Assembly: GCF_014203225.1 (NCBI RefSeq)
Contig: NZ_JACHIO010000027.1
Location: forward strand, 1-64,000
Length of the DNA stretch: 64,000 nt
Direction of reading: 5' to 3'
DNA from: Granulicella mallensis
GTDB lineage: Bacteria > Acidobacteriota > Terriglobia > Terriglobales > Acidobacteriaceae
Positions 17,945 through 60,949 of this stretch are shown here, piece after piece (positions within the stretch are counted from its first letter, which is position 1; the number at the start of each line of letters is the position of its first letter). The position numbers and the translations under genes were made by a program. A model generated the notes under the pieces. That model worked only from the letters and a program-made list of their open reading frames with translations. It searched no databases and had not been told where the DNA came from.

Positions 17945-18029
17945 AAGACTCAGGGCATAGTGCATAGGGTTTAGGGCTCAGAAAGCTTTGTGTTCTGAAC
18001 CCTGGCCCCTGAGCCCTATGCCCTGGTCC
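17945..18029. repeat. Inverted pair of 7-bp arrays, family H3 (CTNNNCC)
   Basis: Left array units AGGGCAT, AGTGCAT, AGGGTTT, AGGGCTC (17952-17979) and right array units CTGAACC, CTGGCCC, CTGAGCC, CTATGCC, CTGGTCC (17995-18029) have a strict 7-base period and are roughly inverted to each other around a 15-base spacer. The stop codon of the GT9 gene (18016-18018, TAG on the minus strand) is part of the CTATGCC unit, and its last codons fall in the array. Confidence 0.8.
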
Positions 18030-19182
18030 CTTCAATGGCCAATACCCGAACCGCTGCCCGAAAGACCTCCTCCACCTCAATCCTCGTTATGCACGAATCG
18101 GATGGCCGCACACACGCCCTCTGTGTGCAGGGATGACAAGGGTAGTCTCCAATGTGATGAAAGGTTTCGCTCTTCTCGCTCAAGGGACGCCAGACATTCG
18201 ACTCACCCGGCCCGAACAATGCCAGCACCGGCACATTCATAAGAGCAGCCGCGTGCATGGGCCCGGAGTCCAATCCGATGAAGAGACTGGCCGTTGCCAT
18301 CGTGTCCAGTAGTCCTTGAAAGTTCGTCACCACGATTTCAATGGGCTGGGCAAGCCGTTCAGAAAGTTGATGGCATAACTCCCTCTCTCCCGGCCCTGCA
18401 ATCAGCACTGTTCGCACGCCAGGCAGTTGTTGCAGCTCACCGATCAGAGCGGCCCATCGCGCCTCATCCCACCGCCGATAGACCCAGCCGGCTCCGGGAT
18501 GAAGCACGATCGTTGACTCTCCCTTCTCCGGCGGCTGTACCCTGTGTCTCAAAAGAGCAGGCAAATGCAGCTCAGGCATAAAGCCCAGGAGTGGCTTGAG
18601 GGCATTCAGATTTCTGAGGTAGCGATGCTGAACCGTGGGATCATCCAGAGGTTCACTGAGCAACAACCCTCTCAGATGAATATTGGAACCTACATAGGTG
18701 GTGTAGCCGATCCTCTGTGTGCAACCCGCCAGCAGCATCAGCGCCTGGCTGCGAATGTCGCCACGAGTATCGATGGCAATGTCGGGACGATAAGCGCGCA
18801 TCTCGCGGCAACTGCGCAGCACCGTCAGCCATTGAGAGAGAGTTCCGCGTTTGCTGCTTCGGCTGGACCACGGAAAAGGGCCGTGCACAATTCTGTGAAT
18901 ACGCAGGTCGTCCTGGTAGAGGTGGGCGTTCCTGCTATGGCACCAGACGAAAATCTTCGCGCCTGGAAAGCGCTCCCGCAGAGGAGCGATCATTACCGCC
19001 AGCGATAGAACATCGCCCATCTGAAAAGGCTCTACGAGGACCACCGTAGGCGACGTAATAGCGTGCGAGTCTTTCGGAGCTGTGCGAAGCAATACGGGCT
19101 TGAAGAGCGCGAGGATACGTTCCAGCACCCGTGAAGCGATAACTTTCCGCTGAGAATATTGCAGCAAAGGTGACTCTCCCAA
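18016..19182 (-). CDS. Glycosyltransferase family 9 (heptosyltransferase-like)
   Basis: 388 residues. Two-domain GT-B architecture: the N-terminal domain opens with FQMGDVLSLAVMIAPLRERFPGAKI, and the C-terminal donor domain has IVLHPGAGWVYRRWDEARWAALI and MATASLFIGLDSGPMHAAALMNVPVLALFG, the family 9 nucleotide-sugar site with the DSGPMHAA motif. The tail has several Cys residues (HPCTQRACVRPSDSC). It probably adds a heptose or related sugar to the lipid-linked or surface glycan made here. The final residues IEGTRA and the stop are encoded by the heptamer array. Confidence 0.85.
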   Translation of the reverse strand: MGESPLLQYSQRKVIASRVLERILALFKPVLLRTAPKDSHAITSPTVVLVEPFQMGDVLSLAVMIAPLRERFPGAKIFVWCHSRNAHLYQDDLRIHRIVHGPFPWSSRSSKRGTLSQWLTVLRSCREMRAYRPDIAIDTRGDIRSQALMLLAGCTQRIGYTTYVGSNIHLRGLLLSEPLDDPTVQHRYLRNLNALKPLLGFMPELHLPALLRHRVQPPEKGESTIVLHPGAGWVYRRWDEARWAALIGELQQLPGVRTVLIAGPGERELCHQLSERLAQPIEIVVTNFQGLLDTMATASLFIGLDSGPMHAAALMNVPVLALFGPGESNVWRPLSEKSETFHHIGDYPCHPCTQRACVRPSDSCITRIEVEEVFRAAVRVLAIEGTRA

Positions 19183-19289
19183 ACTGCTTGTAGAGCGAAT
19201 TTCATTAAGAGCACAGACTTAGCCGCACCTTAACAAAACCCTGCTACAGAAACAGCCATCCGACAGAATTCATGGCCCGGCCACACAAC

Positions 19290-20129
19290 TCAACGTGCCG
19301 GCGGAGACTTGACCCAGGCAGGCTGCGGGACCTCATGCGGCCTCGGATTGGTCTGCGGTGGATAGGATCTCAGGCCCAGCAGTTGCAGCGTGATCGAAAA
19401 CAGGAATGAAGGATTGTTGCGCAGATAACGCCTCCAAAGATGCTTGGGGTCCTGGAGCAGCCGGTGGAACCACTGCAGTCCGTAGCGCTTGATCCACTCC
19501 GCGCAGTCGGCGATTCGGCCCGTATGGAAATCAAAGGCCGCGCCGACTCCAAACATCAGCGTGGTGTTGAGCAGGGGAAGATACCGCTCCATAAAGAGCT
19601 CCTGCTTGGGAGTGCTGATGCCGACCCAGATCATATCCGGCTTCAAACGATCTACCTGCTCGATAAGCTCTTTCTCCTGTTCCTCAGAGAGAGGCCCGAA
19701 GGGAGGCGTATACGTCCCAACGATCTTTACATGCGGAAAACGGGCGACAAGCTGATCGCGCAGCTCTCCGGCAATGCCTTCTTTTCCTCCGCAGAAAAAG
19801 TGGGTGTACTCGCGGAACTCCTTGCGCTGAATGATCTCCAGCATCAGATCGGGTCCGGTAACGCGCTCCATCTGCAGATAACCCTGGTAGTGCCCGACCC
19901 ACACGGTAGGCATGCCGTCGGGAACCGTTAGCGCAGAGTTCGACAGCACCCTTGCCATCTCAGGATTGCGCTGCGCCTCCATCACCCCATGCACCCCCGT
20001 GAGGCAGACATACCCCTTGCGCCGCGCTTCCAGCTCCTCTGCCACCCGTGCGAGAGCCTGCTGCATATTAACCGCATCGACGCCGATGCCCAATACATTT
20101 GCTTTTCTTCTGTGTGGCTGGGCACTCAA
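19290..20129 (-). CDS. WecG/TagA/CpsF family glycosyltransferase
   Basis: 279 residues. Family 26 glycosyltransferase signatures are clear: GIGVDAVNMQQAL near 15, TVPDGMPTVW near 88-97, RVTGPDLM near 110, and DMIWVGISTPKQELFMERYLP near 185. Members transfer N-acetylmannosaminuronic acid or N-acetylmannosamine to a lipid-linked acceptor, an early step in surface polymers; the exact sugar here is unknown. The C-terminal WFHRLLQDPKHLWRRYL is a typical membrane-associating region. The start overlaps the upstream GT4 stop by 4 bases. Confidence 0.88.
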   Translation of the reverse strand: MSAQPHRRKANVLGIGVDAVNMQQALARVAEELEARRKGYVCLTGVHGVMEAQRNPEMARVLSNSALTVPDGMPTVWVGHYQGYLQMERVTGPDLMLEIIQRKEFREYTHFFCGGKEGIAGELRDQLVARFPHVKIVGTYTPPFGPLSEEQEKELIEQVDRLKPDMIWVGISTPKQELFMERYLPLLNTTLMFGVGAAFDFHTGRIADCAEWIKRYGLQWFHRLLQDPKHLWRRYLRNNPSFLFSITLQLLGLRSYPPQTNPRPHEVPQPAWVKSPPAR

Positions 20130-21304
20130 GAGCGACCTCTTTCCAGGGATGGGACCAGGTGGTTATGGTTCTCGACCACGGACGTGCCGTGAAGGAGATG
20201 GGTATAGAGCTGGAGGTAGGCTTCAACGATCCGGGAACTCGAAAAACGTTCCGCCGAGCCGACACGAAATTGCACATCTTTGAGAGCGTTGCGAACCGCA
20301 GCGATAAAAGCAGCTTCCGGATAAGGCTGCAGAGAGGCGTAATGGCAATACGCACCCCCCACTTCGCGAAAGGCAGGGATGTCGGAGCAGACGACCCGGC
20401 AGTGATGCAGCATCGCCTCTACGACCGGAAGCCCGAAGCCCTCAATGCTCGAAAGCGCGAGCAGAAGTTCGCAGTGCGCATAGCACCACTCCATCTCCGC
20501 ATCTTCGATTCCGTGCAATAAAACAACGTGACGCCCAAGATCGTTGTCATAAATAAAACGCCGGATGAAAGCCGTCTCCGGTCCTTCAATCCCGATAATG
20601 ACCAGGCGGGTATTGGGTCTTATGTCGCCATGTTGCAGCAGTTGCTGAAATACCTGCATGCCGAGAACGATGTTCTTGCTGCGGCGATGCTGGGCAACGC
20701 AGAGGAAAAATGGCTCGTCGTTCCACCCGGGAATAGGGCTCTGGCTCGCCATGGCGGGACCGGGGTCGACGCAGTTATAGATCGTCGCCGCCTTCAGCCT
20801 TGCGACGTCCGGCATATGCATATCGAGCCGCCGGAGCGTGCTCTCCGAGACGCAGGCAACAGCATCCACCTCATGCAGACACTTCTTCAGCAGGATGCGA
20901 TTGAACATCATCTTCAGAAATCCGAAGTTGTCCGGAAAGTCGTAAGGGTAGAGATCGTGCAACGTTACGGCGACCTTGCAACCGAAGGCCGACCGCTTCA
21001 ATACCATGGGGCAGGACAGGTGAACGATGTCCACTGCAAACTGATTCGCCAGGCCAGGAAGTTCGTTGTAGTACCAGCGGTTGAGGTTGAATGCCTTGCG
21101 GCGAACCTCGACCTGATGGATCTTCAGCCTTCTATCGGCAAGCGGCAGCATGGAGCGGAACGCGTCATACTGCCACGAACCGACTACAAGATGAATCTCC
21201 GAGATCTCAGAGCGCGTGAGCTGGCAACGAACCATATTCACGGCATGCCGCGATACTCCTGAGATGTGCTCGGACGCGATGACAGCAGCGATCAGAACTT
21301 TCAT
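20126..21304 (-). CDS. Glycosyltransferase family 4
   Basis: 392 residues with GT-B fold. The N-terminal domain includes a glycine-poor acceptor region and HDLYPYDFPDNFGF near 115. The donor-binding domain has FLCVAQHRRSKNI (about 210), and SSIEGFGLPVVEAMLHHCRVVCSDIPAFREVGG (about 290-325), the E-x7-E retaining family 4 signature. It overlaps both neighbours by 4 bases, so flippase, GT4 and WecG-type genes form one coupled block. Likely adds one residue of the repeat unit; donor and linkage are unknown. Confidence 0.88.
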   Translation of the reverse strand: MKVLIAAVIASEHISGVSRHAVNMVRCQLTRSEISEIHLVVGSWQYDAFRSMLPLADRRLKIHQVEVRRKAFNLNRWYYNELPGLANQFAVDIVHLSCPMVLKRSAFGCKVAVTLHDLYPYDFPDNFGFLKMMFNRILLKKCLHEVDAVACVSESTLRRLDMHMPDVARLKAATIYNCVDPGPAMASQSPIPGWNDEPFFLCVAQHRRSKNIVLGMQVFQQLLQHGDIRPNTRLVIIGIEGPETAFIRRFIYDNDLGRHVVLLHGIEDAEMEWCYAHCELLLALSSIEGFGLPVVEAMLHHCRVVCSDIPAFREVGGAYCHYASLQPYPEAAFIAAVRNALKDVQFRVGSAERFSSSRIVEAYLQLYTHLLHGTSVVENHNHLVPSLERGRS

Positions 21305-22626
21305 AGGTCCTCACAGACTGGGTGGAGGCCCGTTGCAGGAAGAGAGGTCTTCGAAGCTCTGAACAGAATGCGAACAAGCGGGAAGTACATCAGCAGGGTG
21401 ATCAGGCCATAGACCAGTCGTGCGATCGCAACGCCACGAATACCCGTACGCGGCAGCAGCCAGGCCATCAAGGCCAGCATGGCAGCGCCGCCCACCAGGT
21501 TGAGCCAGGTAACGGAGCGCACATGGCCTAGCGCCAGCAACGAGTAGTAGCCGGTAACTCCGAGCCCCAGCAGCGCAAAGCTCCACACGATAGGAGCCAG
21601 CACCACGGAGGCGCTCTGGGCAATCGCCGGACCTACCCAGGCGTTGAGCAACGGACGTCCGAAGAAAAGAACGGCAGCCGTACTGACAACGATGAAGGCC
21701 AGGTTTGCAGCAAAGGCGATCAGAACATTTTTTCTCAACGCACCCGGCTGTGAGATAGCCTGACGCGCAGCCAGATACGGAAATAGAAAATGCAATCCAG
21801 CGGCGGCGATACCGTAGATAGGCTGTGCCAGTTGCACGCAGAGCGCATAGGAAGTAACGGTGGCTGCGCCCAGAGAAACCCCGAGGATCAACCGGTCTGC
21901 CTGATTGAAGAGCACGGTTGATACAGCCATCAACCAGCTAAAGATTCCGAATTCAAATAAAGCTGACGTAGCTTGCTTATCGAAGGCGGGCCACAACGAC
22001 GAAGCTCCGAGCCGCCGCTTCAGCTGGACAAGCTGCGCCAGCGTTCCCAGCGTCATGAGCACAAAGGTGAAGACCATGATGCTGATCACGCCATAGCCAT
22101 AGCGTGTGATGACAACCGCAGCCGCAATCGTAACCACTCGCACCAGGATGCTGATGCGCACGGCCTCGCCATAACGCTCAAAAGCTCGCTGCGTGCTGAC
22201 GCAAACGCTCTCAATAGCACGCACGAGCATGAGCACACTCGCGATGCGGAGAGACCAGAGACACGCCTGGTACAGGCTTCCGCTCAACGCTGCCACATGA
22301 TGCGAGATCATCGGCACGAAGGCCAGTGAGATCAGGGCGAAGACACAGCCCAGCAGAAGGTTGATGCCGAGCATGCTGCGTACCGCGTGCAGGGTCGCTT
22401 CCTTGTTGCCGAGACTGTTCATGCTGGCGACATACTGAATATTGGCGTCGCCAAAGCCCGCCGCAATAATGGCTCCTGTACTTACCGCCGCCGTGCAGAC
22501 GACCCACACTCCATACTGCGCCACACCGAGATGGTGCAGCAATGCCGGTGCCGCCGCCAGCATGGCGACGGGATATGCTGCATAGTCCAGCACACCATAA
22601 GCGGCATTGGAGAGATGAGCCCTCAC
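21301..22626 (-). CDS. Oligosaccharide flippase, Wzx-like
   Basis: 441 residues with 12-14 predicted membrane helices and the polysaccharide-export/MATE-like pattern of paired helices (for example FGIFSWLMAVSTVLFNQADRLILGVSLG at about 230-260, where the FNQADR segment is typical for Wzx). It should move lipid-linked oligosaccharide across the inner membrane. It starts directly next to the Wzz stop and overlaps the GT4 start by 4 bases. Confidence 0.85.
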   Translation of the reverse strand: MRAHLSNAAYGVLDYAAYPVAMLAAAPALLHHLGVAQYGVWVVCTAAVSTGAIIAAGFGDANIQYVASMNSLGNKEATLHAVRSMLGINLLLGCVFALISLAFVPMISHHVAALSGSLYQACLWSLRIASVLMLVRAIESVCVSTQRAFERYGEAVRISILVRVVTIAAAVVITRYGYGVISIMVFTFVLMTLGTLAQLVQLKRRLGASSLWPAFDKQATSALFEFGIFSWLMAVSTVLFNQADRLILGVSLGAATVTSYALCVQLAQPIYGIAAAGLHFLFPYLAARQAISQPGALRKNVLIAFAANLAFIVVSTAAVLFFGRPLLNAWVGPAIAQSASVVLAPIVWSFALLGLGVTGYYSLLALGHVRSVTWLNLVGGAAMLALMAWLLPRTGIRGVAIARLVYGLITLLMYFPLVRILFRASKTSLPATGLHPVCEDL

Positions 22627-23916
22627 CTACGAGTTCCTCCGCTCTGGGATGAAACCCTGCGTGCGAGCGCGGATGCTGGCGGCAATCTGCTGAGCAAGCA
22701 CCTTGCGCGGATCGTCGGCAGCTACCTGCTCCCAGGAGTTCTGAAGAATAAGAATGGTCGCCGCGATCCCGACAAAAAATATCGTCAGCAGAAGCATCAT
22801 CGGCACGCGAGGAGGAAACGACTTCTTCTCCGCCAGCAGCGGCTGTTCGAACACGCTGACGACCGGCGTGTCTTTCGCCTCTTCAATCCTCGCCAGTTCA
22901 TACTGCTGCGAGAGCAGCTCAAACACGGTCTCCTGAATACGGACATCGCGATAGAGATTGGCATAGGGAACGGCAAGGCGCGGAATCTGCCGCAGCGAAG
23001 GGTACATGCTCGAGCTGTTCGGGTCGCTCTTCGCGTCCCGCGCAGGAACTTCCACGCTGCTGCCGCTCATCTTCTGCAGTTCGCCCTGCAGATCGGCAAT
23101 ACGCGCTCGTGCGGCACGTACGCGCACATTGTCATCTCCATAGATCTGCTTCAGGGAGGCCAGCTCAGACTGGCCGACGATCATCTCTGCCTGCAGCTTG
23201 GAGCCTGCATCGACCATGGCACGGGTCTGCTCTTTGATATCAAGCGTGGTGTTGACACTGGAAAAATCGCTCAGCGCCTTCTCTGCCGTCAGCAGCGAAT
23301 CCTGCACCGTAACCAACCGCTTCTCGATGAACTCCCGCTCCTGGTGCGCAGACGAGACGCTCGTATGCGTAAGCAGGTTGTTCAACTCTTCGATATACGC
23401 GGCTGCAATTGCGCGGGCGCGCTCTGCGTTGGTGTCGGTGAAGGTAAGAGTGACAACGCCGCTCTTCTTGTCCTCTTCCACCTTCGTGTGACGCACCAGG
23501 TACTTCACCGTATCGATGCGATAGCGCTTGTGATACACGTGCTGCAAGTCAAAACGATCGATAATATGATCGTTGATCGCGCGGCTATGCAGCAGGTCGA
23601 TGTAGAGTGCGCTCGAGGACTTCGCGCCCAGCAGACTGCCGGCGAGACTACCCAGACCACCCAGTCCCCCGAGCGAACGGCCCGCCAGCGCAGCCAGCAT
23701 CGCCGCACCCGAGCTGCCCTGCTCGGGAGGCATAAGCCGTGCCGTGGACTGATATTGCTTTGGGATAGTGAAGGCGATAATTCCGCTCAAAACGAGCGAG
23801 ATTACGCCCACGCGAAAGAGCGTGCGGCGGCGAGTCCACAGGAACGTGGCATTGGTAACCCAATTGGCCGTAGGCTTAGTCGCCACAGGGGTCGAGATGT
23901 GATCCGTGCTGGACAC
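22627..23916 (-). CDS. Chain-length determinant Wzz-like protein
   Basis: 429 residues. An N-terminal membrane helix (about 35-52, VGVISLVLSGIIAFTIP) is followed by PKQYQSTARLMPPEQ, a large periplasmic coiled-coil region (about 170-350) and a second membrane helix (about 375-395, VPMMLLLTIFFVGIAATILI) preceded by PPRVP, as in PCP/Wzz proteins. There is no cytoplasmic tyrosine kinase domain. Translation starts at GTG, overlapping the Wzi stop by one base (TAGTG). Confidence 0.88.
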   Translation of the reverse strand: MSSTDHISTPVATKPTANWVTNATFLWTRRRTLFRVGVISLVLSGIIAFTIPKQYQSTARLMPPEQGSSGAAMLAALAGRSLGGLGGLGSLAGSLLGAKSSSALYIDLLHSRAINDHIIDRFDLQHVYHKRYRIDTVKYLVRHTKVEEDKKSGVVTLTFTDTNAERARAIAAAYIEELNNLLTHTSVSSAHQEREFIEKRLVTVQDSLLTAEKALSDFSSVNTTLDIKEQTRAMVDAGSKLQAEMIVGQSELASLKQIYGDDNVRVRAARARIADLQGELQKMSGSSVEVPARDAKSDPNSSSMYPSLRQIPRLAVPYANLYRDVRIQETVFELLSQQYELARIEEAKDTPVVSVFEQPLLAEKKSFPPRVPMMLLLTIFFVGIAATILILQNSWEQVAADDPRKVLAQQIAASIRARTQGFIPERRNS

Positions 23917-34424: not shown

Positions 34425-34429
34425 TACGA

Positions 34430-34557
34430 GTGATAAGTGATAAGTGGTAAGTGGTAAGTGGCAAGTGACAAGTGACAAAGAATTTTCTTGCCGCAACCCA
34501 ATACAGCCCGAACCACCCAATCTCTCTACTTATCACTTGCCACTTGTCACTTATCAC
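34430..34557. repeat. Inverted pair of 7-bp arrays, family H1 (GTGRYAA)
   Basis: Seven tandem units GTGATAA, GTGATAA, GTGGTAA, GTGGTAA, GTGGCAA, GTGACAA, GTGACAA span 34430-34478. Four inverted units TTATCAC, TTGCCAC, TTGTCAC, TTATCAC span 34530-34557, with a 51-base spacer. The spacer repeats GCCGCAACCCA from the end of the MoxR gene. The array replaces any normal ribosome-binding site before the DUF58 ATG. Confidence 0.92.
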
Positions 34558-34565
34558 TCTCTTCT

Positions 34566-36053: not shown

Positions 36054-36060
36054 GAAAGAC

Positions 36061-36095
36061 AGAGTGTAGAGAGTAGAGGATAGAGTGTAGACGGC
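36061..36095 (+). repeat. 7-bp array, family H2, after DUF58 gene
   Basis: Five tandem units AGAGTGT, AGAGAGT, AGAGGAT, AGAGTGT, AGACGGC begin 8 bases after the DUF58 stop. Three of the four unit joins form TAG, so stops recur every 7 bases in changing frames. The inverted partner is at 37052-37079, on the far side of the transposase unit. Confidence 0.88.
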
Positions 36096-36155: not shown

Positions 36156-36258
36156 CCTTTCTTGCTTTGTCATTCCCGCAGGGAATCTGCTTTTGCGGTT
36201 GCGGTTGTCTTCGCCGTTCTGGTTGTCATTCCGAGCGCAGCGAGGAACCTGCTGTCTG
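36156..36258 (+). repeat. Two half-elements of the GTCATTCC family
   Basis: Two single arms lie in tandem: 36156-36194 with GTCATTCCCGCAGGGAATCTGCT and 36215-36258 with GTCATTCCGAGCGCAGCGAG followed by GAACCTGCTGTC. Neither has an opposing arm nearby. Together with the transposase arm they fill the 394-base gap 36054-36447; no gene is seen there. Confidence 0.8.
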
Positions 36259-36313: not shown

Positions 36314-37000
36314 CAGCGCGAAGCGCCATCCGTGACGCTTTAGCGTCGCGGTATGGAGGGTAAGGGAGGCAATCGCCTTCAAGCCCCTGAAATAGGATTA
36401 GCAAAAATGCGGCCTTTAGGCCCGGGCCTTTCGTTTATGCTGCCCACATGGATCGCGCTCCACAGGAAACCCGAACTTACCACCTCACTGCTGTTACGGC
36501 TCAACGCCGAAGCCTCTTTCAGGTCACGGCGACGGCTGAACTATTGCAACAAACAATCTTTGATTACCGGGGTCAAGGCAGGTTCCTACTGCACGCGTTC
36601 GTCATCATGCCCGATCACTTCCACGCGCTGATCACACCTGCCCATGATGTTTCGCTCGAAAAGACCGTGCAGTTCATCAAGGGAGGATTTTCTTTCCGCC
36701 TGAAGAGCAAGTTCGATGTCTGGACGAGAAGCTTCAACGAAACCCAGATCCTGGACGAAGAAAAGTTCCTGACCTGCGTGCGATATATCGAAGACAATCC
36801 TGTTCATGAGAGGCTCGCTCAAACACCGGAGGTCTACCCCTACACCTCCGCAGGACGTGGCCCGCTGGACCCCATGCCGCTCCACCTCCGGGCCTAAAGG
36901 CCACATTTTGGGTGGTCTTAATTCAGGGGCCTGAAGGCGATTGCCTCCCTTACCCTCCGTCTCCGCGACGCTAAAGCGTCACGGTTGGCGCTTCGCGCTG
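36314..37000. mobile_element. REP-transposase unit with 112-bp inverted arms
   Basis: Arms 36314-36425 and 36888-37000 are imperfect inverted repeats of about 112 bases, closely matching across most of their length. Each arm contains smaller palindromes: GACGCTTTAGCGTC, GGCAATCGCC, and GGCCTTTAGGCC. They enclose the tyrosine transposase gene. The unit lies between the convergent DUF58 and SpoIIM genes, and in turn between inverted H2 heptamer arrays. Confidence 0.88.
36448..36897 (+). CDS. REP-associated tyrosine transposase (RAYT)
   Basis: 149 residues of the Y1 transposase (IS200-like) fold. The metal-binding HUH motif is HFH at 57-59 in MPDHFHALI, and the catalytic Tyr is Tyr113 in CVRYIEDNPV. 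Such proteins cut and join single-stranded REP hairpins. The gene is intact. Its TAA stop (36895-36897) lies within the right-arm palindrome GGCCTAAAGGCC, so gene and repeat are fused units. It interrupts the otherwise conserved MoxR-DUF58-SpoIIM-RDD gene order. Confidence is high for family, moderate for activity. Confidence 0.92.
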   Translation: MDRAPQETRTYHLTAVTAQRRSLFQVTATAELLQQTIFDYRGQGRFLLHAFVIMPDHFHALITPAHDVSLEKTVQFIKGGFSFRLKSKFDVWTRSFNETQILDEEKFLTCVRYIEDNPVHERLAQTPEVYPYTSAGRGPLDPMPLHLRA

Positions 37001-37051
37001 CATCGGCAAGATGAAACACCCAAACGCCCAACGAAGCGCTACGATGCCTTC

Positions 37052-37079
37052 TCTACGCTCTACTCTCTACACTCTGCTT
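37052..37079 (-). repeat. 7-bp array, family H2, encoding the SpoIIM C-terminus
   Basis: Units TCTACGC, TCTACTC, TCTACAC, TCTGCTT read on the plus strand. On the minus strand they encode SVESRA and the TAG stop of the SpoIIM gene (37053-37055). It is the inverted partner of 36061-36095. Confidence 0.88.
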
Positions 37080-38033
37080 TCCAACCCTCTGCCGTCCACC
37101 CTCGCTCAACCACACCACCAACCCCGTAAACAGCACCGCGCAGACCGCAAACTTAAGCGCCATGGGAGCATGAGTCGGCGAGAGAAAAGCCTCAAGCGTA
37201 CCCGCAACGATCAGCAAAGGAATCGTCCCCGAGATCAGTTGCACCGCCTCATTCCCCGCCAGAGCCAGAGCCTCGCGACGCCGCAGCATCCCCGGAAAGA
37301 GAATCCCCGCACCGAGCCGCAGACCGGCGGCCCCGGCGATCATGATGCTCGGAATCTCCAGCGCCCCATGCGCAGCCATGAAGCTCACCAGGTTAAGCGC
37401 CATATGGTGCTGCGCGCAGCAGGTCAGCACCACCGCGATCTCCAGGCCGTTATTGAAGAGCAGAAATAGCGTGCCGAGGCCCGCCAGAATCCCCCCGGCA
37501 AACGTCATGAAGCAGACGCCGATATTGTTCGTCATAATCGCCGACGACGCCTGCGGCTTCGCGCTCAATACGCTATCGGTCCACATCTTATGCTGCTGAA
37601 TCGTGTCCATCATCTGCGGACCGAGCATCATCGTTGCGAAGTCCGGGCGAACAATCGTAATCAGCGTTCCCAGCAACCCCGCGAGCAGGAAGACAGCGGT
37701 CGCCGCCGTCACATAGCCCGACAGCCGCCGCAGCAGCCGGGGATAGCCATAGGCAAAGAACCGCCACACACTCGCAGCAGAGATGCGCTGCCCCGAATAG
37801 ACATAGTTATGCGCGCGCCCCACCAGACGGTTGAGATACTGCTCCAGCGCCCGCGAGCTGCGGTCGGCACGCGCCGAGCTCAAGTCCGCCGCGCCCTGGC
37901 GATAGAGCAGGCCCAGCTCGCGCAGCTCCGCAGGGTCGAGCGACTTCACGCCATGGCTCTCGACCTGACGCACGAGCACGTCGAGCCGGTTCCAGTTATT
38001 CTTACGAAGATCTATCCAGAGGTTTGAGATCAT
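37053..38033 (-). CDS. SpoIIM-family (stage II sporulation protein M) membrane protein
   Basis: 326 residues. The N-terminal 100 residues are soluble and start with MISNLWIDLRKNNWNRLDVLV, the usual opening of this family in non-spore-formers. About six membrane helices follow from 105 to 310, including NNIGVCFMTFAGGILAGLGTLFLLFNNG and HGALEIPSIMIAGAAGLRLG. In this context it is a member of the MoxR/DUF58 cluster, not a sporulation factor. Its start codon shares bases with that of the divergent RDD gene (CATG at 38031-38034). Its last residues come from the heptamer array. Confidence 0.85.
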   Translation of the reverse strand: MISNLWIDLRKNNWNRLDVLVRQVESHGVKSLDPAELRELGLLYRQGAADLSSARADRSSRALEQYLNRLVGRAHNYVYSGQRISAASVWRFFAYGYPRLLRRLSGYVTAATAVFLLAGLLGTLITIVRPDFATMMLGPQMMDTIQQHKMWTDSVLSAKPQASSAIMTNNIGVCFMTFAGGILAGLGTLFLLFNNGLEIAVVLTCCAQHHMALNLVSFMAAHGALEIPSIMIAGAAGLRLGAGILFPGMLRRREALALAGNEAVQLISGTIPLLIVAGTLEAFLSPTHAPMALKFAVCAVLFTGLVVWLSEGGRQRVGKQSVESRA

Positions 38034-43967: not shown

Positions 43968-43981
43968 GCACCTTATCGGCA

Positions 43982-44050
43982 AAGAGCTACGAGAGATTCA
44001 GCACCGAGGCAATCAATCCTCAACGCTGAATTCCTCGTAGCTCTTAGCTC
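43982..44050. repeat. Inverted 7-bp motif pair, family H4 (CTCNTAG), hairpin
   Basis: AAGAGCTACGAG at 43982-43993 pairs with CTCGTAGCTCTT at 44034-44045, and GATTCAGC pairs with GCTGAATT inside. The right side reads CTCGTAG, CTCTTAG, CTCAACA at 7-base spacing. It lies between the convergent MsrB and CHY-zinc-finger genes and could act as a two-way terminator, though no T run is present. Confidence 0.75.
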
Positions 44051-45181: not shown

Positions 45182-45217
45182 CTCTCTGCTCAACCCCTCA
45201 TAGCTCTTAGCTGATTG
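45182..45217 (+). repeat. 7-bp array, family H4
   Basis: CTCTCTG, CTCAACC, one extra C, CTCATAG, CTCTTAG, CTGATTG follow the M24 stop by 16 bases. The CTCTTAG unit is shared with 44041. The rest of the 471-base gap to the GH18 gene has a likely promoter and a leader with no recognised RNA structure. Confidence 0.7.
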
Positions 45218-48785: not shown

Positions 48786-48949
48786 GCGCTATCGACAATA
48801 TCTTTCGAAAGCGTCGATCGTCAAACGAACCCGCCACAAACAGGAACATCCGAGAAACACACCTAAAGCGGCCCGATCAAAATATTGAATTGAGCGCTCA
48901 AATCATTCAATACCTGGGCGGGTGGTCCAGGTCTGAGCCGGAAAAAAAT

Positions 48950-49093
48950 GGGTGCCCCACATCTCGTTTTGAGATGTGGGTTGTAGGACATGCCGAGGGT
49001 TTTGTTGGATAACAGCCGATGAATCGAACATTGCGCTCAGGAGATCATGCCACGTCAAACGCCCACGTCTCAGAAGCGAGACGTGGGGCACCC
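48950..49093. repeat. Inverted pair of palindromic units (GGGTGCCCCAC)
   Basis: GGGTGCCCCACATCTC at 48950 and its inverted relative ending GTGGGGCACCC at 49093 bracket about 75 bases. Each unit is itself a hairpin (CCCACATCTCG/GAGATGTGGG and CCCACGTCTC/GAGACGTGGG). It accounts for part of the 514-base gap 48786-49299; nothing else recognisable was found there. Confidence 0.85.
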
Positions 49094-54150: not shown

Positions 54151-54191
54151 CGTCAAACACTATCCCTCAACAGCTTTGGACACAGCCATAC

Positions 54192-54237
54192 TCTCGGTCT
54201 TTTTACCACCCATTCTCGGTCTTTCTTTACCACCCAT
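54192..54237 (-). repeat. Tandem duplication of the DUF4112 gene end
   Basis: TCTCGGTCTTTTTACCACCCAT (54192-54213) and a 24-base variant (54214-54237) are direct repeats. The right copy encodes the last residues and the TAA stop of the DUF4112 gene on the minus strand. Confidence 0.8.
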
Positions 54238-54769: not shown

Positions 54770-54805
54770 CAGGGGGTCCCTCGCTTCGTTTCCACACCTG
54801 TTGGA

Positions 54806-54814
54806 TGCTACAAT
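54806..54814 (+). promoter_or_regulatory. Extended -10 element before tRNA-His
   Basis: TGCTACAAT lies 12 bases before the tRNA-His 5' end, the right place for an extended -10 box (TGn plus TACAAT). No good -35 box was found. Confidence 0.5.
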
Positions 54815-54826
54815 CATCTTCGATAC

Positions 54827-54902
54827 GGCGGCTATAGTTCAGTGGCAGAACGCCGCTCTGTGGCAGCGGATGTCGTGGGTTCGAACCCCACTAGCCGCCC
54901 CA
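54827..54902 (+). tRNA. tRNA-His (GUG)
   Basis: 76 bases with encoded CCA. The anticodon stem-loop CCGCT-CTGTGGC-AGCGG gives anticodon GTG. The 5' G at 54827 pairs with C73, the extra G-1:C73 pair unique to tRNA-His, and the acceptor stem GCGGCTA pairs with TAGCCGC. Confidence 0.97.
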
Positions 54903-54968
54903 ATCACTCTCTTCTTCTGTAAACCGACGCCCAGGTCGGCGATCCAGTCCAGCGTCCGAGAGACCTGC

Positions 54969-55772: not shown

Positions 55773-56800
55773 TGGCATCGCCCCCCTGGCCTGCAGGCTA
55801 TCCCGAGTTCCAGACCCGGCGCTGGCTCTCCAACGGCCACCTGCAGACCATCTTCGGAAACTTCCTCCCCCGGCCCAACCACCTTCCCCGCCCCGTGGCG
55901 CAGTTGGTCGAAGTCTCCCCCGCGCACGGCACGCAGATCTCCAGCCAGGTGCTGTGCGAGTGCCACTGGCAGCCGCTGCCGGAGCGGCCTCAGCGTCCGA
56001 CGGCGATCATCGTGCATGGGCTGGAGGGCTCATCGCGCTCGCAGTACGTCGTCGGCAATGCGAACAAGCTGTGGCAGGCAGGCTGCAACGTGATCCGCAT
56101 GAACATGCGCAACTGCGGCGGCACCGAACGCCTCACGCCGACGCTCTACCACTCCGGCCTGTCGGGCGATGTGGGCCGCGTGCTGCGTTTCTTCATCGAG
56201 ACACAGGGGCTGCAGTCGGTCTCGCTCATCGGCTACTCGATGGGCGGCAACCTCGTGCTGAAACTTGCCGGCGAACTCGGCGCGGACGCACCCCCAGCCC
56301 TGCGCAGCGTGATCGGTGTTTCACCTGCGGTCGATCTGGGTGTCTCTGCGGACGCTCTGCATACATGGCAGAACCGCATCTATGAGCGCCGCTTCCTGAA
56401 CGCGCTGCTGAAGCGCTTCCGCCGCAAGGCGATGCTCTTTCCTCGCGCCTTCGATCCGCAGCGCGGCACGTACATCACCTCGGTGCGAGAGTTCGACGAC
56501 CGCATCACCGCGCTCTACTCCGGCTTCCGCAGCGCGGACGACTACTACTACCGCGCAGCAGCGGCTCGCGTGCTCGACCAGATCGCGGTTCCAGCGCTGC
56601 TGCTCCACGCCTGCGACGATCCCTTCATTCGCTTCACCGAGGAGACCCGCGCCGTCATCGCCGCCAATCCGCACCTCACGCTGCTCGAAACCGAGCACGG
56701 CGGCCACTGCGCCTTTCTCGCCCCGCCAGACCCCACGAACGGCAACGACGGCTACTGGGCCGAGCACACGGCCATGCGATTCGTTCTCGCCCACGCCTGA
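55772..56800 (+). CDS. Alpha/beta hydrolase, YheT-like
   Basis: 342 residues. The N-terminal FQTRRWLSNGHLQTIFGNFLPRP is the YheT-family lead. The catalytic set is Ser in GYSMGGN (about 154), Asp in HACDDPFI (about 285) and His in HGGHCAFL (about 311). HGLEGSSRSQYV forms the oxyanion region. It is likely an esterase; the substrate is unknown. The ATG overlaps the DUF72 stop by one base. Confidence 0.88.
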   Translation: MASPPWPAGYPEFQTRRWLSNGHLQTIFGNFLPRPNHLPRPVAQLVEVSPAHGTQISSQVLCECHWQPLPERPQRPTAIIVHGLEGSSRSQYVVGNANKLWQAGCNVIRMNMRNCGGTERLTPTLYHSGLSGDVGRVLRFFIETQGLQSVSLIGYSMGGNLVLKLAGELGADAPPALRSVIGVSPAVDLGVSADALHTWQNRIYERRFLNALLKRFRRKAMLFPRAFDPQRGTYITSVREFDDRITALYSGFRSADDYYYRAAAARVLDQIAVPALLLHACDDPFIRFTEETRAVIAANPHLTLLETEHGGHCAFLAPPDPTNGNDGYWAEHTAMRFVLAHA

Positions 56801-56853
56801 GTTAAGACCACACTGAGTTAAAGATTTTCCGGCTCTCTGCCGTATGCTAGAGA

Positions 56854-57519
56854 ATGATGCTCGCAGACTGGACCGCCGAATGCTCCGCCGACGCGCCAAC
56901 ACTTGTCGTTCCATGGTCCGATCCTGACAGCACGGCGCACTTCGTCGATCTGCGCGCCGAACCCTACGACATCGCCGAGATTCCTGAAGCCGAGCGATTC
57001 CCTCCCCTGGGCCGCGCCCTGCGAGCCCTGAACGCAACGCGCTCGCCCTTCCTCACCGCCAAGTGCGACACCTGGCAGATGTCCGCCACCTCCCATGCCG
57101 ACGATCTCGAGGCGCTACGGATGGAGCTCGACCTCGATCCCGAGGCCACCCACTTCGGCTTCGCAAGCTACATCGATCTGTTGTGGCGCGAGCGGCCTGT
57201 CTTCGCTTCGGCGCACCAACAGCAGGACAGGCTCGACCGCATCGTACGCCGCGCACAGCGCCTGCCGCACAACGCCGCCGCACTGGAGTGCGTGCTGCGC
57301 CCCGCCCTGCTCGACCTCAACGGCCCGCTTGAAGGCTTCGCCGTAACGCTGTATGTAACGGCTCTGGGAACCGACGCCGAAGAGGCTCTGCATCGCTGGG
57401 CGGCGGCGCTGGAAGATGTTGTTGCTTTGTTGCGCGGCAAAGAGCTTGAAGCAACGCGCGGCTCGGCTACAATCGATGGAGCGGATGCGTTCCCCTTGCG
57501 CGTCCGGCACGTCGGCTGA
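56854..57519 (+). CDS. Conserved hypothetical protein
   Basis: 221 residues, not recognised; an alternative start is the next codon (ATG 56857). It is a soluble mixed alpha/beta protein without signal peptide. The middle has ATRSPFLTAKCDTWQM and a helical stretch ATHFGFASYIDLLWRE, and the C-terminal half is regular helix and strand. High GC and host-like codon use mark it as a resident gene. It runs almost to tRNA-Arg, whose likely promoter lies inside its last codons. Confidence 0.6.
   Translation: MMLADWTAECSADAPTLVVPWSDPDSTAHFVDLRAEPYDIAEIPEAERFPPLGRALRALNATRSPFLTAKCDTWQMSATSHADDLEALRMELDLDPEATHFGFASYIDLLWRERPVFASAHQQQDRLDRIVRRAQRLPHNAAALECVLRPALLDLNGPLEGFAVTLYVTALGTDAEEALHRWAAALEDVVALLRGKELEATRGSATIDGADAFPLRVRHVG
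57446..57473 (+). promoter_or_regulatory. Likely promoter of tRNA-Arg
   Basis: TTGAAG at 57446-57451 and TACAAT at 57468-57473 are spaced 16 bases, inside the end of the upstream gene. The tRNA begins 64 bases after the -10 box, implying a short leader. Confidence 0.45.
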
Positions 57520-57536
57520 AATAAGCCACACCACAG

Positions 57537-57613
57537 GGGCGAGTAGCTCAACTGGATAGAGCACCGACCTTCTAAGTCGGGGGTTGCAGGTTCGAGACCT
57601 GCCTCGCCCACCA
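57537..57613 (+). tRNA. tRNA-Arg (UCU)
   Basis: 77 bases with encoded CCA. The acceptor stem GGGCGAG pairs with CTCGCCC; the anticodon stem-loop CCGAC-CTTCTAA-GTCGG gives anticodon TCT; the T arm has GTTCGAGAC. Confidence 0.97.
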
Positions 57614-57708
57614 TCTCAGCCCTGGCACTACGGCTGTATTGATTACAAACCCACCCAAAATCTTGTCATTTCGACCGACCAACGGGAGTGGGTTCCTATC
57701 TGCTGAGC

Positions 57709-58137
57709 CCTAGTGTCTGTCATCAAACTGCTTCCGGAATGAAGTGAAATGGCGCAAACAGCTTGTTTCGGCACTGTTTCGTTAAGGGCCTGGCTTCAGC
57801 CAGGCCACAAAGGCGGCTCCACAGGAGCGTACCGCTCTGCCGAAGGCGGGAGTGGAGGCGCAGCCGCAACGACTGAATTGCTTTCTTTGGTTGCTGCGAG
57901 ACGGGTAGCCACATCCACGAAGGTGTCTGGGTTGTTCCTTGTGCAATCTGGGCCGCACGAAGGAAGGCAATTCAATCGTTCCGGCTGCGCCTCCACTCTG
58001 GCCTTCGGCAGAAAGGTATGGCCTTTGGCCTGCTACTTATGGCATGGCTGAAGTCATGCCCTTAACGAAACAGTGCCACAGCAAACTATTTGCGCAGTCC
58101 GACTTCATCCCAGAAACAATTGGATGACAGACCCTAG
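57709..58137. repeat. Two diverged ~180-bp copies in inverted orientation
   Basis: The left copy begins CCCTAGTGTCTGTCAT and the right copy, read backwards, begins TGCCTAGGGTCTGTCAT. Shared internal blocks include GGCACTGTTTCGTTAAGGGC, GACTTCAGCC/GGCTTCAGCC, and GTGGAGGCGCAGCC. Overall similarity is clearly below that of the other palindromes. It fills most of the 520-base gap between tRNA-Arg and the MFS gene, which ends inside it. No gene is seen. Confidence 0.85.
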
Positions 58138-59417
58138 GCAATCTCCATCTCGCTCGGCGGGATGCTCGGCCCGCTCTGCGGATGTCTGCGGCTGTACCCC
58201 GTTGCGTGACGCACGCCGGCCAGAACGATCAGACCGATCTCCAGCGCGCAGACACCGTTCCACTCCCAGCGCGACCAGGCCAGGCTTGCCAGGGCTGAAC
58301 CGATCGCTCCGCCGATGAAGTACATCGTCATGTAAATCGTATTCAGTCTGCTTCGCGCCAACTCTCCCAGGCCGAAGATCCGTGTCTGGTTCCCCACCTG
58401 CATCATCTGCATGCCGAGATCCAGTGCCAGTACGCCGAACACCAGGAACACCATGTGCAGGGTCGTCGAGACATGAAAGCCCTCGCACAGCCAGATCCAC
58501 AGGTAGCAGAATGTCATGATCCCCCCGGCCAGCGTCACCACAAACCGCGTGCCATGCCGGTCGGAGAGCCTGCCCGCAAAGGGAGCCACCATGGCACCCG
58601 CGGCGCCCACCACACCAAAGGTCCCGGCAACGCCCGGCCCCATTCCATAGTGCTTTGAGAGCACGAACGCGAGCGTAGTCCAGAAGCAGCTGAAGGTCGC
58701 AAAGGTCAGGCCGCCGATCGTACCCGCCTCTCGCAGCAGGGGCTCGTCCCGAAACAGCGTCCAAAGAGACCGCAGGGTTTGCTTATAGGTCAAATCCTGA
58801 TGCGGCTGCGAACGCGGCATGACCTTGTACAGGACGGGCACAAAGATGGCATTCATCAGGGCAGCCGCAAAAAACACCGAACGCCAGCCGCCGATGCCGC
58901 TCACCCATCCCGCAAAGCTGCGCGCCAGTAGGACGCCCAGCAGCAGGCCCGTCATCACCGTGCCGATGGCCTGCCCGCGCCGCTCGTGCGGCACCAGCTC
59001 CGGAGCCATGGGCAGCACGATATGCGTCACCGAAGCCATCAGCCCGATGAGCACGCTCGCTATCAGCATCGTCGCCAGGTGATGCGACAGCGCCGCAATG
59101 AGCAGCGCCACACTGACGCCCGCATACATGCGCACCATGAGCTTGCGGCGGTCGGTGATATCACCGAGCGGGACGAAGGACATGATGCCGCAGGCATACC
59201 CTACCTGGGTGGCGACGGCGACGAAGCCCATCTCCTTGGCCGTCTGATGCAGACTCTGTCCCATGACCAGCAGCAACGGCTGGTTGTAGTAGATGGAACC
59301 CACGCCGACGGCGCACGCAACGCCTAGAAAAGGCAGTGCCCAGCGCCCTCCCATTCCGATCTGAGATTGTTTCTCCATTGAATGACTCGACATCGAGTCT
59401 ACACAGCTCCGGTTCAT
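58134..59417 (-). CDS. MFS transporter, YnfM-like
   Basis: Up to 427 residues; MSSHSMEKQ or MEKQSQ are alternative starts 8-13 codons in. About 12 membrane spans, with the loop signature GDITDRRKLMVRMY between spans 2 and 3 and GRLSDRHGTRFV in the second half. VGSIYYNQPLLL near span 1 is typical of the inner-membrane efflux group containing YnfM and arabinose-efflux-like proteins. Substrate unknown. The last codons (EMEIA) lie at the edge of the inverted repeat at 57709-58137. Confidence 0.85.
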   Translation of the reverse strand: MNRSCVDSMSSHSMEKQSQIGMGGRWALPFLGVACAVGVGSIYYNQPLLLVMGQSLHQTAKEMGFVAVATQVGYACGIMSFVPLGDITDRRKLMVRMYAGVSVALLIAALSHHLATMLIASVLIGLMASVTHIVLPMAPELVPHERRGQAIGTVMTGLLLGVLLARSFAGWVSGIGGWRSVFFAAALMNAIFVPVLYKVMPRSQPHQDLTYKQTLRSLWTLFRDEPLLREAGTIGGLTFATFSCFWTTLAFVLSKHYGMGPGVAGTFGVVGAAGAMVAPFAGRLSDRHGTRFVVTLAGGIMTFCYLWIWLCEGFHVSTTLHMVFLVFGVLALDLGMQMMQVGNQTRIFGLGELARSRLNTIYMTMYFIGGAIGSALASLAWSRWEWNGVCALEIGLIVLAGVRHATGYSRRHPQSGPSIPPSEMEIA

Positions 59418-59489
59418 TCCGAGAAGCTTCGCGCTTGTCGTTCTTCCATCTTAACGCGGACTGAAGATTTATCATGAATCAGGAGCTTT

Positions 59490-60617
59490 ATGCCGCTGAA
59501 CAACACCATTGCCGTAGCCATGTCCGGAGGAGTCGATTCCTCGGCAGTTGCAGCCCTTTTGCACGCCGAAGGGCGCGATCTAATCGGGCTGACGCTGCAG
59601 CTCTGGAACCAGCGCCGCCTGGCCGGCCGCGAGGGCATGCCCGAGACCGTACAGGGCCGCTGCTGCTCCATCGACGACGTCTATGACGCCCGCCGCGTCG
59701 CCGAGCAGATCGGCATTCCCTACTACCTCGTGAACGCGCAGGAGCGCTTCGAGAACGAGGTCGTGCGCCCGTTCGTCGACGAGTATCTCGCCGGACGCAC
59801 ACCGATCCCCTGCACGCTCTGCAATAACCACCTGAAGTTCGATCAACTGCTGCTGACTGCGCGGCAGATCGGCGCCGACCGCATCGCCACCGGCCACTAC
59901 GCGCGCAACCATTACGACGAAGCACGCGCGCGCTGGGTCCTTTCCCGGCCCGCCGACAAGTCCAAAGACCAGACCTACTTCCTCTTCGGCCTCACGCAGG
60001 ATCAGCTCTCACGCACGCTCTTTCCCCTGGGCGAGATGCAGAAGCCCGCGGTACGCTCGATGGCTGCCGACCATGGGCTGGAGCTGGCACAAAAGCCCGA
60101 TTCGCAGGAGATCTGCTTCATCCCCGGCGGCAGCTATTCGCAGTTTCTGAAGGCCTATCTCGATGAGCAGGGCCGCGAACTTCCCGACAGCTCGGGAGAG
60201 TTGGTCTCCGCGAGTGGAGAGGTTCTGGGACATCACGAGGGTATTCACGGCTTTACGGTCGGACAGCGCAAGGGCCTGGGGCTCAGCTCGCCGCAGCCGC
60301 TGTACGTGCTGAACATCCATCCCGACTCGCATGCGGTGCAGGTCGGAACGGACGACCAGCTTCTCTCGTGGACGCTCATCGCCGACCGCCTGAACTGGGT
60401 CTCGATCCTGGAGCCGGAGGAAGAGATCCGCGTCACGATCAAGATTCGCCATCGCCACGAGCCCGCCCCTGCGACGTTGCGCGTAACCGCATTCGACCGC
60501 GTGGAAGCGACGTTTGATGAGCCTCAGCGGGCGATCACACCAGGGCAATCAGCGGTGTTCTACCAGGGAGACGAGGTCGCAGGCGGCGGATGGATAACGG
60601 CAGAGGATAGAGAATAG
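59490..60617 (+). CDS. mnmA: tRNA-specific 2-thiouridylase MnmA
   Basis: 375 residues. PP-loop AMSGGVDSSA at 10-19 binds ATP; CTLCNNHLKF puts the nucleophilic Cys at 111, and Cys209 in SQEICFIPGG is the partner that forms the persulfide. C-terminal beta-barrel includes HGFTVGQRKGLGLS. It thiolates U34 in tRNAs for Lys, Glu and Gln. The last residues AEDRE and the TAG stop are encoded by H2 heptamers (AGAGGAT, AGAGAAT). Confidence 0.96.
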   Translation: MPLNNTIAVAMSGGVDSSAVAALLHAEGRDLIGLTLQLWNQRRLAGREGMPETVQGRCCSIDDVYDARRVAEQIGIPYYLVNAQERFENEVVRPFVDEYLAGRTPIPCTLCNNHLKFDQLLLTARQIGADRIATGHYARNHYDEARARWVLSRPADKSKDQTYFLFGLTQDQLSRTLFPLGEMQKPAVRSMAADHGLELAQKPDSQEICFIPGGSYSQFLKAYLDEQGRELPDSSGELVSASGEVLGHHEGIHGFTVGQRKGLGLSSPQPLYVLNIHPDSHAVQVGTDDQLLSWTLIADRLNWVSILEPEEEIRVTIKIRHRHEPAPATLRVTAFDRVEATFDEPQRAITPGQSAVFYQGDEVAGGGWITAEDRE

Positions 60618-60622
60618 GCGGT
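60602..60622 (+). repeat. 7-bp array, family H2, encoding MnmA C-terminus
   Basis: Units AGAGGAT, AGAGAAT, AGGCGGT. They encode the last codons of mnmA and the TAG stop. The inverted partner array is at 60894-60949. Confidence 0.8.
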
Positions 60623-60646
60623 CGAGGCCTCTATGCCTCCGTCGTC

Positions 60647-60846
60647 TTTGCTTTTCTGGTTGTCATTCCGAGCGCAGCGAGTGAACCTGCTGTCTCCCGC
60701 TCTTTGCTTACGCCACTACAAATGTTATGTGGTTACCCAAGCTCTGCCCGGCTATTCTGGCCTGCCTGCTTTCGCGGTAGTACAAGCGAAAAACGGGAGA
60801 CAGCAGGTTCACTCGCTGCGCTCGGAATGACAACCAGAAAAGCAAA
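60647..60846. repeat. Perfect 53-bp inverted repeat element (GTCATTCC family)
   Basis: Arms 60647-60699 and 60794-60846 are exact reverse complements over 53 bases, with the same TTGCTTTTCTGG, GTCATTCCGAGCGCAGCGAG and CTGCTGTCTCCCG blocks as 38907-39104. Together with the flanking heptamer arrays it fills the 319-base gap between convergent mnmA and the DUF948-like gene. Confidence 0.92.
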
Positions 60847-60893
60847 GGACAAAGAACGAAGGCGAAACGCGTGGCTTAGCGGACACTACTAAG

Positions 60894-60949
60894 TCTATCC
60901 TCTATCCTCTATCCTCTACTCTCTACACTCTGCTCTTTACTCTCTTCTC
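60894..60949 (-). repeat. 7-bp array, family H2, eight units
   Basis: TCTATCC three times, then TCTACTC, TCTACAC, TCTGCTC, TTTACTC, TCTTCTC with no slip in period. The TAA stop (60937-60939) and the last codons of the DUF948-like gene lie inside it on the minus strand. Confidence 0.93.

What the first reader, a model, noticed from the sequence alone, without database searches (positions are those of the whole stretch)
17945..60949. A class of 7-bp tandem arrays at gene ends, with four sequence families
Arrays with strict 7-base period occur at 17945-18029, 34430-34557, 36061-36095, 37052-37079, 43982-44050, 45182-45217, 60602-60622 and 60894-60949. The unit sequence differs between sites but the period, the location at gene ends and the inverted pairing are shared. 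Since 7 is not a multiple of 3, an array whose units carry TAG or TAA gives stops in all three frames within 21 bases. Heptamer STRR repeats are known in heterocystous cyanobacteria; I know of no description in this phylum linked to stop codons.
Basis: partly seen in the sequence, partly recalled or inferred. Interest (0 to 1): 0.85.

Follow-up and report, generated by a model that had tools for sequence, protein, structure and literature searches.

The report
Seven-base repeat hairpins at gene ends
This soil bacterium carries many small DNA hairpins built from repeated seven-letter words, packed tightly against the ends of genes, and related species can hold the same hairpin design at the same spot written in different words; similar seven-letter repeats are known from Xanthomonas and Nostoc, but what they do is unproven.

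Summary
The arrays are real: 7 window regions pass a lag-7 threshold where 0.3 are expected, and exact patterns recur genome-wide (60, 66 and 108 matches; controls 1, 0 and 18). They are arms of hairpins with one polarity: 49 of 54 distinct neighbouring same-family pairs have the AG-core arm first. Arms facing a stop codon abut it (56 of 63 within 10 bp; random placement 4-18%); arms facing a start do not (7 of 52). Arms face starts nearly as often as stops, and stops inside units show no selection, so the stop-codon reading fails. Some orthologous spacers in relatives hold the same design in another heptamer family; others are array-free, in three relatives only 2-14 bp long. A G-rich counterpart with the same polarity and inverted pairs is published for Xanthomonas (PMC4692102, sections read). 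Here 0 of 77 arms of two families have four GGG tracts, so quadruplexes cannot be the common cause. Best reading: fast-turnover dispersed palindromic repeats, tolerated or used as mRNA 3'-end structures. Copying mechanism and function are not shown. New variant of a known kind.

The parts
17951..17978 (+). arm, YAGGG family, 3 perfect units; faces the start of the gene at 16897-17904 (-), 46 bp away
17998..18032 (-). partner arm, YAGGG family, 5 units; overlaps the end and supplies the TAG stop of the glycosyltransferase-9 gene 18016-19182 (-)
   Evidence: fold of 17945-18035 -50.7 kcal/mol, z -6.7
34428..34476 (+). arm, AAGTG family, 7 units, 3 bp after the MoxR stop
34532..34559 (-). partner arm, AAGTG family, 4 units, 6 bp before the DUF58 ATG
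   Evidence: fold -58.7 kcal/mol, z -9.0; orthologous spacers of 2, 9 and 14 bp in three relatives
36060..36087 (+). arm, TAGAG family, 4 units, 6 bp after the DUF58 stop
37049..37076 (-). partner arm, TAGAG family, 4 units; overlaps the end and supplies the stop of the SpoIIM-like gene 37053-38033 (-)
   Evidence: longest perfect inverted match 19
36448..36897 (+). Y1 (IS200-like) transposase, RAYT-type by its surrounding palindromes, lying in the loop between the two TAGAG arms
   Evidence: Pfam Y1_Tnp 2.6e-12; palindromes read by eye
43979..44048 (.). weak hairpin (GAGCTAC-like units), 31-nt arms 81% complementary
   Evidence: period weak
45182..45217 (.). weak period-7 stretch, no inverted partner found
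60602..60617 (+). short arm, TAGAG family, two units; supplies the TAG stop of the MnmA-like gene 59490-60617
60894..60950 (-). long arm, TAGAG family; overlaps the end and supplies the stop of gene 60937-61728 (-)
60646..60847 (.). different inverted repeat nested inside the TAGAG pair: 64-nt arms, 95% complementary, 74 nt apart

Best explanation
These are copies of a fast-turnover class of dispersed intergenic palindromes whose arms are tandem heptamers (core xAGNG in this genome, read outward from the gene). Each genome has its own few heptamer families. Shown: dispersal, fixed polarity, arm pairing, tight abutment on stop codons, short array-free spacers in relatives, and a different family at the same spacer in some relatives. 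Inferred: copies arrive as DNA (TAGAG arms share unit order between loci) and are reworked by slippage in 7-nt steps; at gene ends the hairpin can take over as the structure at the mRNA 3' end, so spacer DNA between it and the stop codon is lost, while start-side sequence needed for initiation is kept.
For: Genome-wide families. 49 of 54 distinct neighbouring same-family arm pairs are in the order of a hairpin with the AG-core arm first; the 5 exceptions are 2 opposite-order and 3 same-strand pairs. Arms of one locus match each other better than arms of other loci: longest perfect stem mean 17.1 against 13.6 on permuting partners, p=0.0002, n=44. RNA folds of 6 elements: z -6.7 to -18.7. Stop-facing arms within 10 bp of the stop in 56 of 63, start-facing in 7 of 52. 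In all 10 convergent loci at most 20 bp of spacer is left outside the arms (median 5; background median 150; p=1.4e-5). Outer ends of the stems are followed by at least 5 T in 8 bases in 17 of 84 cases, background 5.7%, p=5e-6 (neighbouring stop codons TAA/TAG add T's). TAGAG unit order is shared between loci: 19 shared 4-unit words counted by locus pair, 2.9 expected. Short sites: the MoxR-DUF58 spacer is 141 bp here and 2, 9 and 14 bp in three relatives; a divergent spacer is 125 bp here and 44 in G140 (L106/L143). Same spacer, other family: L067/L137, L068/L136 (two spacers), L079/L166, window/L020 (two spacers). Own against G140: both 4, own only 5, G140 only 2, neither 30, p=0.015.
Against: Loops differ from locus to locus even where arms are identical, which is odd for transposition of a whole unit. 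I identified no transposase tied to the arms and no target duplication (looked for by eye only). Unit order is not shared between loci in the AAGTG and YAGGG families. Spacer types hosting pairs do not differ from background (27 codirectional, 10 convergent, 5 divergent of 42; background 382, 87, 88 of 557; p=0.35), so no enrichment at transcription ends. Intrinsic-terminator scans gave 0, 0 and 1 site (0.5 expected) at three elements, though that scan allows loops of 3-8 only and cannot see stems with long loops; 67 of 84 outer ends lack 5 T in 8. Terminator-like loops: 3 of 24 (0.47 expected). The site-sharing statistic is significant in G140 only at threshold 15, not at 16 or 17, and not in G064. 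Polarity is not absolute: 14 of 72 scorable arrays here and 7 of 34 in relatives point the other way from the nearest gene.
Confidence: 0.45

Rival explanations
1. The arrays serve as back-up stop codons: units with TAG or TAA close all three frames behind the gene.
For: TAGAG arms close all three frames in 24 of 29 stop-facing rows; 11 of 63 stop-facing arms overlap the gene's own stop.
Against: 12 of 18 start-facing TAGAG arms do the same; YAGGG shows no TAG excess at stops (p=0.59); 14 of 17 AAGTG and 17 of 18 YAGGG stop-facing arms do not close three frames.
Confidence: 0.04
2. The arrays are selected as in-place bidirectional terminators or 3'-end stabilisers, grown where needed by slippage and not mobile.
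For: Abutment on stops; long stems; T-rich outer ends in 17 of 84; orthologous spacers with different heptamers but the same design, in one case around a terminator-like loop (L068 8047; its G140 counterpart by eye).
Against: Present in divergent spacers at about the background rate; most outer ends lack a T-tract; the MoxR-DUF58 spacer looks operonic (2-14 bp in three relatives); TAGAG arms share unit order between loci, which implies copying.
Confidence: 0.2
3. Neutral 7-nt slippage in unconstrained DNA, limited by coding sequence.
For: Period 7 is preferred whatever the sequence; unit order is random between loci in two families.
Against: Does not predict dozens of loci with the same heptamer, the fixed polarity, or paired arms that match each other.
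Confidence: 0.12
4. G-quadruplexes on the G-rich strand, as proposed for Xanthomonas and Nostoc heptamers.
For: 34 of 41 YAGGG arms have four or more GGG tracts; same polarity as in PMC4692102.
Against: 0 of 48 TAGAG and 0 of 29 AAGTG arms have four GGG tracts, yet polarity, pairing, commonest unit number and abutment are the same.
Confidence: 0.05
5. The outward strand is an RNA or DNA ladder for a multimeric protein that reads one xAG motif per seven bases.
For: Arrays with a scorable AG or CT core point AG outward in 58 of 72 here and 27 of 34 in relatives; 36 of 142 could not be scored (22 without a clear core, 14 inside called genes).
Against: No protein candidate was sought or found; units differ strongly between relatives.
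Confidence: 0.08

Closest known systems
GGGAATC / GGGGA(C/T)T heptameric repeats of Xanthomonas and Nostoc (Rehm et al. 2015, PMC4692102; abstract, introduction, sections on xanthomonads, intergenic repeats, homology, transcriptome and discussion read; passages elsewhere)
   Same: 7-nt units, most often four; intergenic; G-rich strand outward from genes (coding strand after stops, non-coding strand before starts); convergent inverted pairs in Xanthomonas (70 and 75 cases; few in Nostoc); close to or overlapping stops; site often kept while length varies.
   Different: Here three unrelated families share the geometry in one genome, two of them without G-tracts; relatives can hold a different family at the same spacer; the stop-side distance has a median of 2-3 bp per family.
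TAACTGA direct repeats of Beggiatoaceae, cyanobacteria and Bacteroidetes (MacGregor 2015, PMC4679880; abstract and one section read)
   Same: Mostly intergenic heptamers, patchy in phylogeny, near gene boundaries, indels of 7 nt between close strains.
   Different: One sequence; in the Beggiatoa genome mostly just before starts; [quoted passage not shown]
REP / BIME elements and RAYTs (PMC3733652; abstract start and passages only)
   Same: Dispersed extragenic palindromes, close to ORFs, termini may supply TAG stops.
   Different: REPs are 20-40 bp with a GTAG or CGTC tag, not heptamer arrays.
STRR heptamers of heterocystous cyanobacteria
   Same: Tandem heptamers, several families per genome.
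   Different: Paired hairpin geometry not known to me.

Membership tests
Rehm-type G-rich heptameric repeats | period of 7 nt, mostly four units | tested here: met
   four units are commonest in all three families (20 of 48, 11 of 29, 23 of 41); arms below 3 units were not counted
Rehm-type G-rich heptameric repeats | G-rich strand outward from the nearest gene; inverted pairs | tested here: met
   outward in 58 of 72 scorable arrays here
Rehm-type G-rich heptameric repeats | able to form a G-quadruplex (four G-tracts) | tested here: not met
   met by 34 of 41 YAGGG arms only; 0 of 77 arms of the other two families
Rehm-type G-rich heptameric repeats | under-represented between divergent genes | tested here: inconclusive
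   5 of 42 pairs against 88 of 557 background spacers; all types together p=0.35
REP / RAYT palindromes | GTAG or CGTC tag at one end of a 20-40 bp palindrome | tested here: not met
   by eye: arm outer ends are mostly CAGAGTG, GAGTG or CAGGG after a short linker
REP / RAYT palindromes | mobilised by a cognate RAYT | not testable with these tools
   one Y1 transposase gene lies in a loop; no link to the arms shown
Intrinsic terminators | GC-rich stem followed by a T-tract | tested here: inconclusive
   0, 0 and 1 sites at three elements, with a scan limited to loops of 3-8; at least 5 T in 8 after 17 of 84 stem ends, background 5.7%; terminator-like loops in 3 of 24
MITE | terminal inverted repeats with target-site duplication and conserved interior | tested here: inconclusive
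   inverted arms yes; interiors differ by eye; duplications looked for by eye only

The most novel reading that the evidence does not exclude
One generator, shared across phyla, lays 7-nt repeats outward from gene boundaries whatever their sequence: Acidobacteriaceae, Xanthomonas and Nostoc arrays would be products of one process (for example templated extension of DNA 3' ends, or a protein reading one xAG motif per seven bases), with each genome holding its own heptamer vocabulary that is rewritten within a genus while the sites persist.
Probability: 0.1. Interest if true: 0.85.

Novelty: new variant of a known kind. Interest (0 to 1): 0.5.

Why it matters
It removes the quadruplex as the general explanation of polar heptamer repeats, because two families without G-tracts obey the same geometry. 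It also gives natural experiments: orthologous spacers with no element, one family or another family, in the same gene context, so that effects on transcript ends can be compared directly.

Tried and rejected
Stop-codon function: tested and not supported. G-quadruplex as the common cause: rejected. RAYT-type gene in the loop as mobiliser: not supported, but only by reading one loop. Intrinsic terminator: three scans gave 0, 0 and 1 site, but the scan cannot see stems with long loops; a direct count afterwards showed a T excess at stem ends, so this stays open. A tempting reading, that relative G140 has a native terminator where this genome has a heptamer hairpin (L158 against L073), was not confirmed by the scan (one search found a different, weak site). 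Rfam: only three tRNAs at gathering scores in the window. First gene callers missed genes and were replaced by the one; it still leaves gaps (for instance 48.7-54.2 kb of the window) and its start codons are uncertain, so start-side distances are rough. Dropped rows: of 132 arms 14 lie inside called genes and 2 lack a neighbour, leaving 116, of which one array was counted twice in overlapping register, so 115 distinct; searches used the 116. Of 49 pairs 5 were dropped for an arm inside a called gene and 2 for a missing neighbour, leaving 42 (44). The YAGGG place list was cut at 100 of 108. The loci were chosen because they hold arrays, so only and the window give densities. G064 stretches L114-L125 were chosen because they hold TAGAG arrays, which inflates 'relative only' spacers there; those were chosen as orthologues of own array loci. 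Of 107 orthologous spacer pairs 106 were counted.
Full report
SOURCE. The window is part of contig 27 of a 6.47-Mb genome in 52 contigs. The four loci found by the DUF58 protein in named genomes are MAGs titled Granulicella or Acidobacteria, so an Acidobacteriaceae member is likely; the family name is my inference.

OBSERVATION. Period 7 is real. Seven regions in the window reach 19 of 28 lag-7 matches where a Markov model gives 0.3. Of the eight sites listed, five are clear, three are weak as arrays, and two of the weak ones still belong to inverted repeats. In 400 kb of relatives chosen without regard to arrays, period 7 gave 15 regions and periods 4, 5, 8, 10, 11 and 13 gave none; periods 6, 9 and 18 appear too, as expected of coding repeats. 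Eight of the 15 come from one stretch of G006 and 6 of the 15 lie in called genes; in the own genome 0 of 7 do. The arrays belong to families dispersed over the genome: TAGAGNN three times running 60 matches (control 1), AGTGNNN 66 (0), AGGGNNN 108 (18), CGAGNNA 4 (0).

ANATOMY. I took 132 arms of three or more units from 94 stretches; two overlap as one array. Neighbouring same-family arms are in the order plus then minus in 49 of 54 distinct cases; the others are 2 minus-plus and 3 same-strand pairs. So an element is a hairpin whose outward strand, read from the gene, carries xAG units. The outer unit is CAGAGTG in 30 of 47 TAGAG arms. In 20 stop-facing TAGAG arms with a linker of 1-10 bases, 68 of 69 linker bases are purines; in the other two families 65% and 70% are. 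Arms of one locus match each other better than arms of other loci (stem 17.1 against 13.6 bp, p=0.0002, n=44). Six elements fold with z from -6.7 to -18.7. Loops vary from 2 to 961 bp and are not alike by eye; 3 of 24 loops of 25-494 nt hold a terminator-like hairpin, 0.47 expected. Outer stem ends are followed by at least 5 T in 8 bases in 17 of 84 cases against 5.7% in background spacers (p=5e-6), partly because stop codons stand there.

POSITION. Of 115 distinct arms with a called neighbour, 63 face a stop and 52 a start (p=0.35). The distances differ strongly: 56 of 63 stop-facing arms lie within 10 bp (11 overlap the stop), 7 of 52 start-facing arms do (p=1.5e-15, with one array counted twice). 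Random placement gives 4% (weighted by length) to 18% (equal spacers) for stops. In 10 of 10 convergent loci at most 20 bp remain outside the arms (median 5; background median 150; p=1.4e-5). Codirectional residues are also shorter than background (p=0.03), divergent ones too (p=0.009). Spacer types do not differ from background (p=0.35). TAA is commoner next to arms (27 of 45) than in the background (202 of 572, p=0.001).

STOP-CODON HYPOTHESIS. If arrays were kept for stops, stop-facing arms should carry more than start-facing ones. They do not: TAGAG 24 of 29 rows against 12 of 18 with three frames closed (p=0.29), YAGGG T:C 20:41 against 26:43 (p=0.59).

RELATIVES. The TAGAG pattern occurs in 5 of 150 genomes of the family including this one, and in quantity only here (60) and in one congener, G064 (33, control 10); the other three have 1-3 matches, no more than their control in two of them. 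Other family members have many other heptamers, such as TAGTGGT, CAGTTTG, GAGCTGT, TAGTACC; AG points outward in 27 of 34 scorable cases there and 58 of 72 here. Orthologous spacers are the most telling. MoxR-DUF58: AAGTG hairpin here, YAGGG hairpin in L020, spacers of 2, 9 and 14 bp in G064, G116 and L017, and array-free spacers in L018 and L019. DUF58-SpoIIM: TAGAG here, AAGTTCC array in L020, none seen in L017 and L018. L067 5826: TAGAG here, AGAGAT hairpin in G140. L068 2051: AGGGATT here and AGAGAT in G140. L068 8047: TAGAG here and YAGGG in G140, both around a terminator-like loop (here, there by eye). L079 3366: TAGAG here and in G064, YAGGG in G140. Against that, own array and none in the relative: with G140 L061 3795, L063, L073, L079 14290, L106; with G064 L061 9516, L073, L079 14290, L081, window; with G116 L066 (three spacers), window. 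Relative only: G064 at L040, L061 1567 and L092 4554 (where the own spacer has a weaker array of another family); G140 at L067 7467 and L092 6967. The table for G140 is both 4, own only 5, G140 only 2, neither 30 (p=0.015); for G064 1, 5, 3, 28 (p=0.52); for G116 0, 4, 0, 6; pooled 5, 14, 5, 64 (p=0.035); at thresholds 16 and 17 nothing is significant. So site sharing is suggestive, not proven; a different family at the same spacer is seen directly in single cases.

MECHANISM. Copying between loci is supported for TAGAG (19 shared 4-unit words by locus pair, 2.9 expected) and not for the other two families. Gain is supported by the short spacers of relatives. Non-homologous loops, and no transposase or target duplication noticed, speak against simple transposition. 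I infer that copies arrive, slip in 7-nt steps, and at gene ends become the structure next to the stop codon. That they end or protect transcripts is inferred; terminator evidence is mixed. In Xanthomonas, transcripts start or stop at quadruplex-capable repeats more often than at controls (PMC4692102, transcriptome section), which makes the test worthwhile.

KNOWN AND NEW. The Xanthomonas GGGAATC repeats share period, unit number, polarity, inverted pairs and stop-codon closeness. New here are three families with one geometry in one genome, two unable to form quadruplexes by the four-GGG criterion, and a different family at orthologous spacers. My two searches joining Acidobacteria with heptanucleotide or heptamer repeats listed no paper describing such repeats in Acidobacteria. 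Subscription papers are mostly not covered.

Noticed in passing
window 48947-48982 and 49062-49093: Inverted dispersed repeat (GGTGCCCCACATCTC type) with many matches in congener G140; looks like another REP-like family.
   Followed up: no
window 36448-36897: Y1 (RAYT-type) transposase surrounded by palindromes of its own, nested between TAGAG arms that abut both convergent stops.
   Followed up: partly
window 60646-60709 and 60784-60847: 64-nt inverted repeat, 95% complementary, nested inside the TAGAG pair; it contains a TCATTCCGAGCGCAGCGAG motif also present near 36224.
   Followed up: partly
L153 (20 kb of G006, another genus): Eight period-7 regions of several heptamer families in one stretch chosen without regard to arrays; that genome may be far richer.
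   Followed up: no
window 1-64000: Local hot spot of arrays compared with 40 other stretches of the genome; cause unknown.
   Followed up: no
L092 6967-7040 and L162 3957-4058: Orthologous convergent spacer: by eye a terminator-like hairpin here; in G140 a terminator-like hairpin followed by a single ACTCNNA array next to the stop.
   Followed up: no
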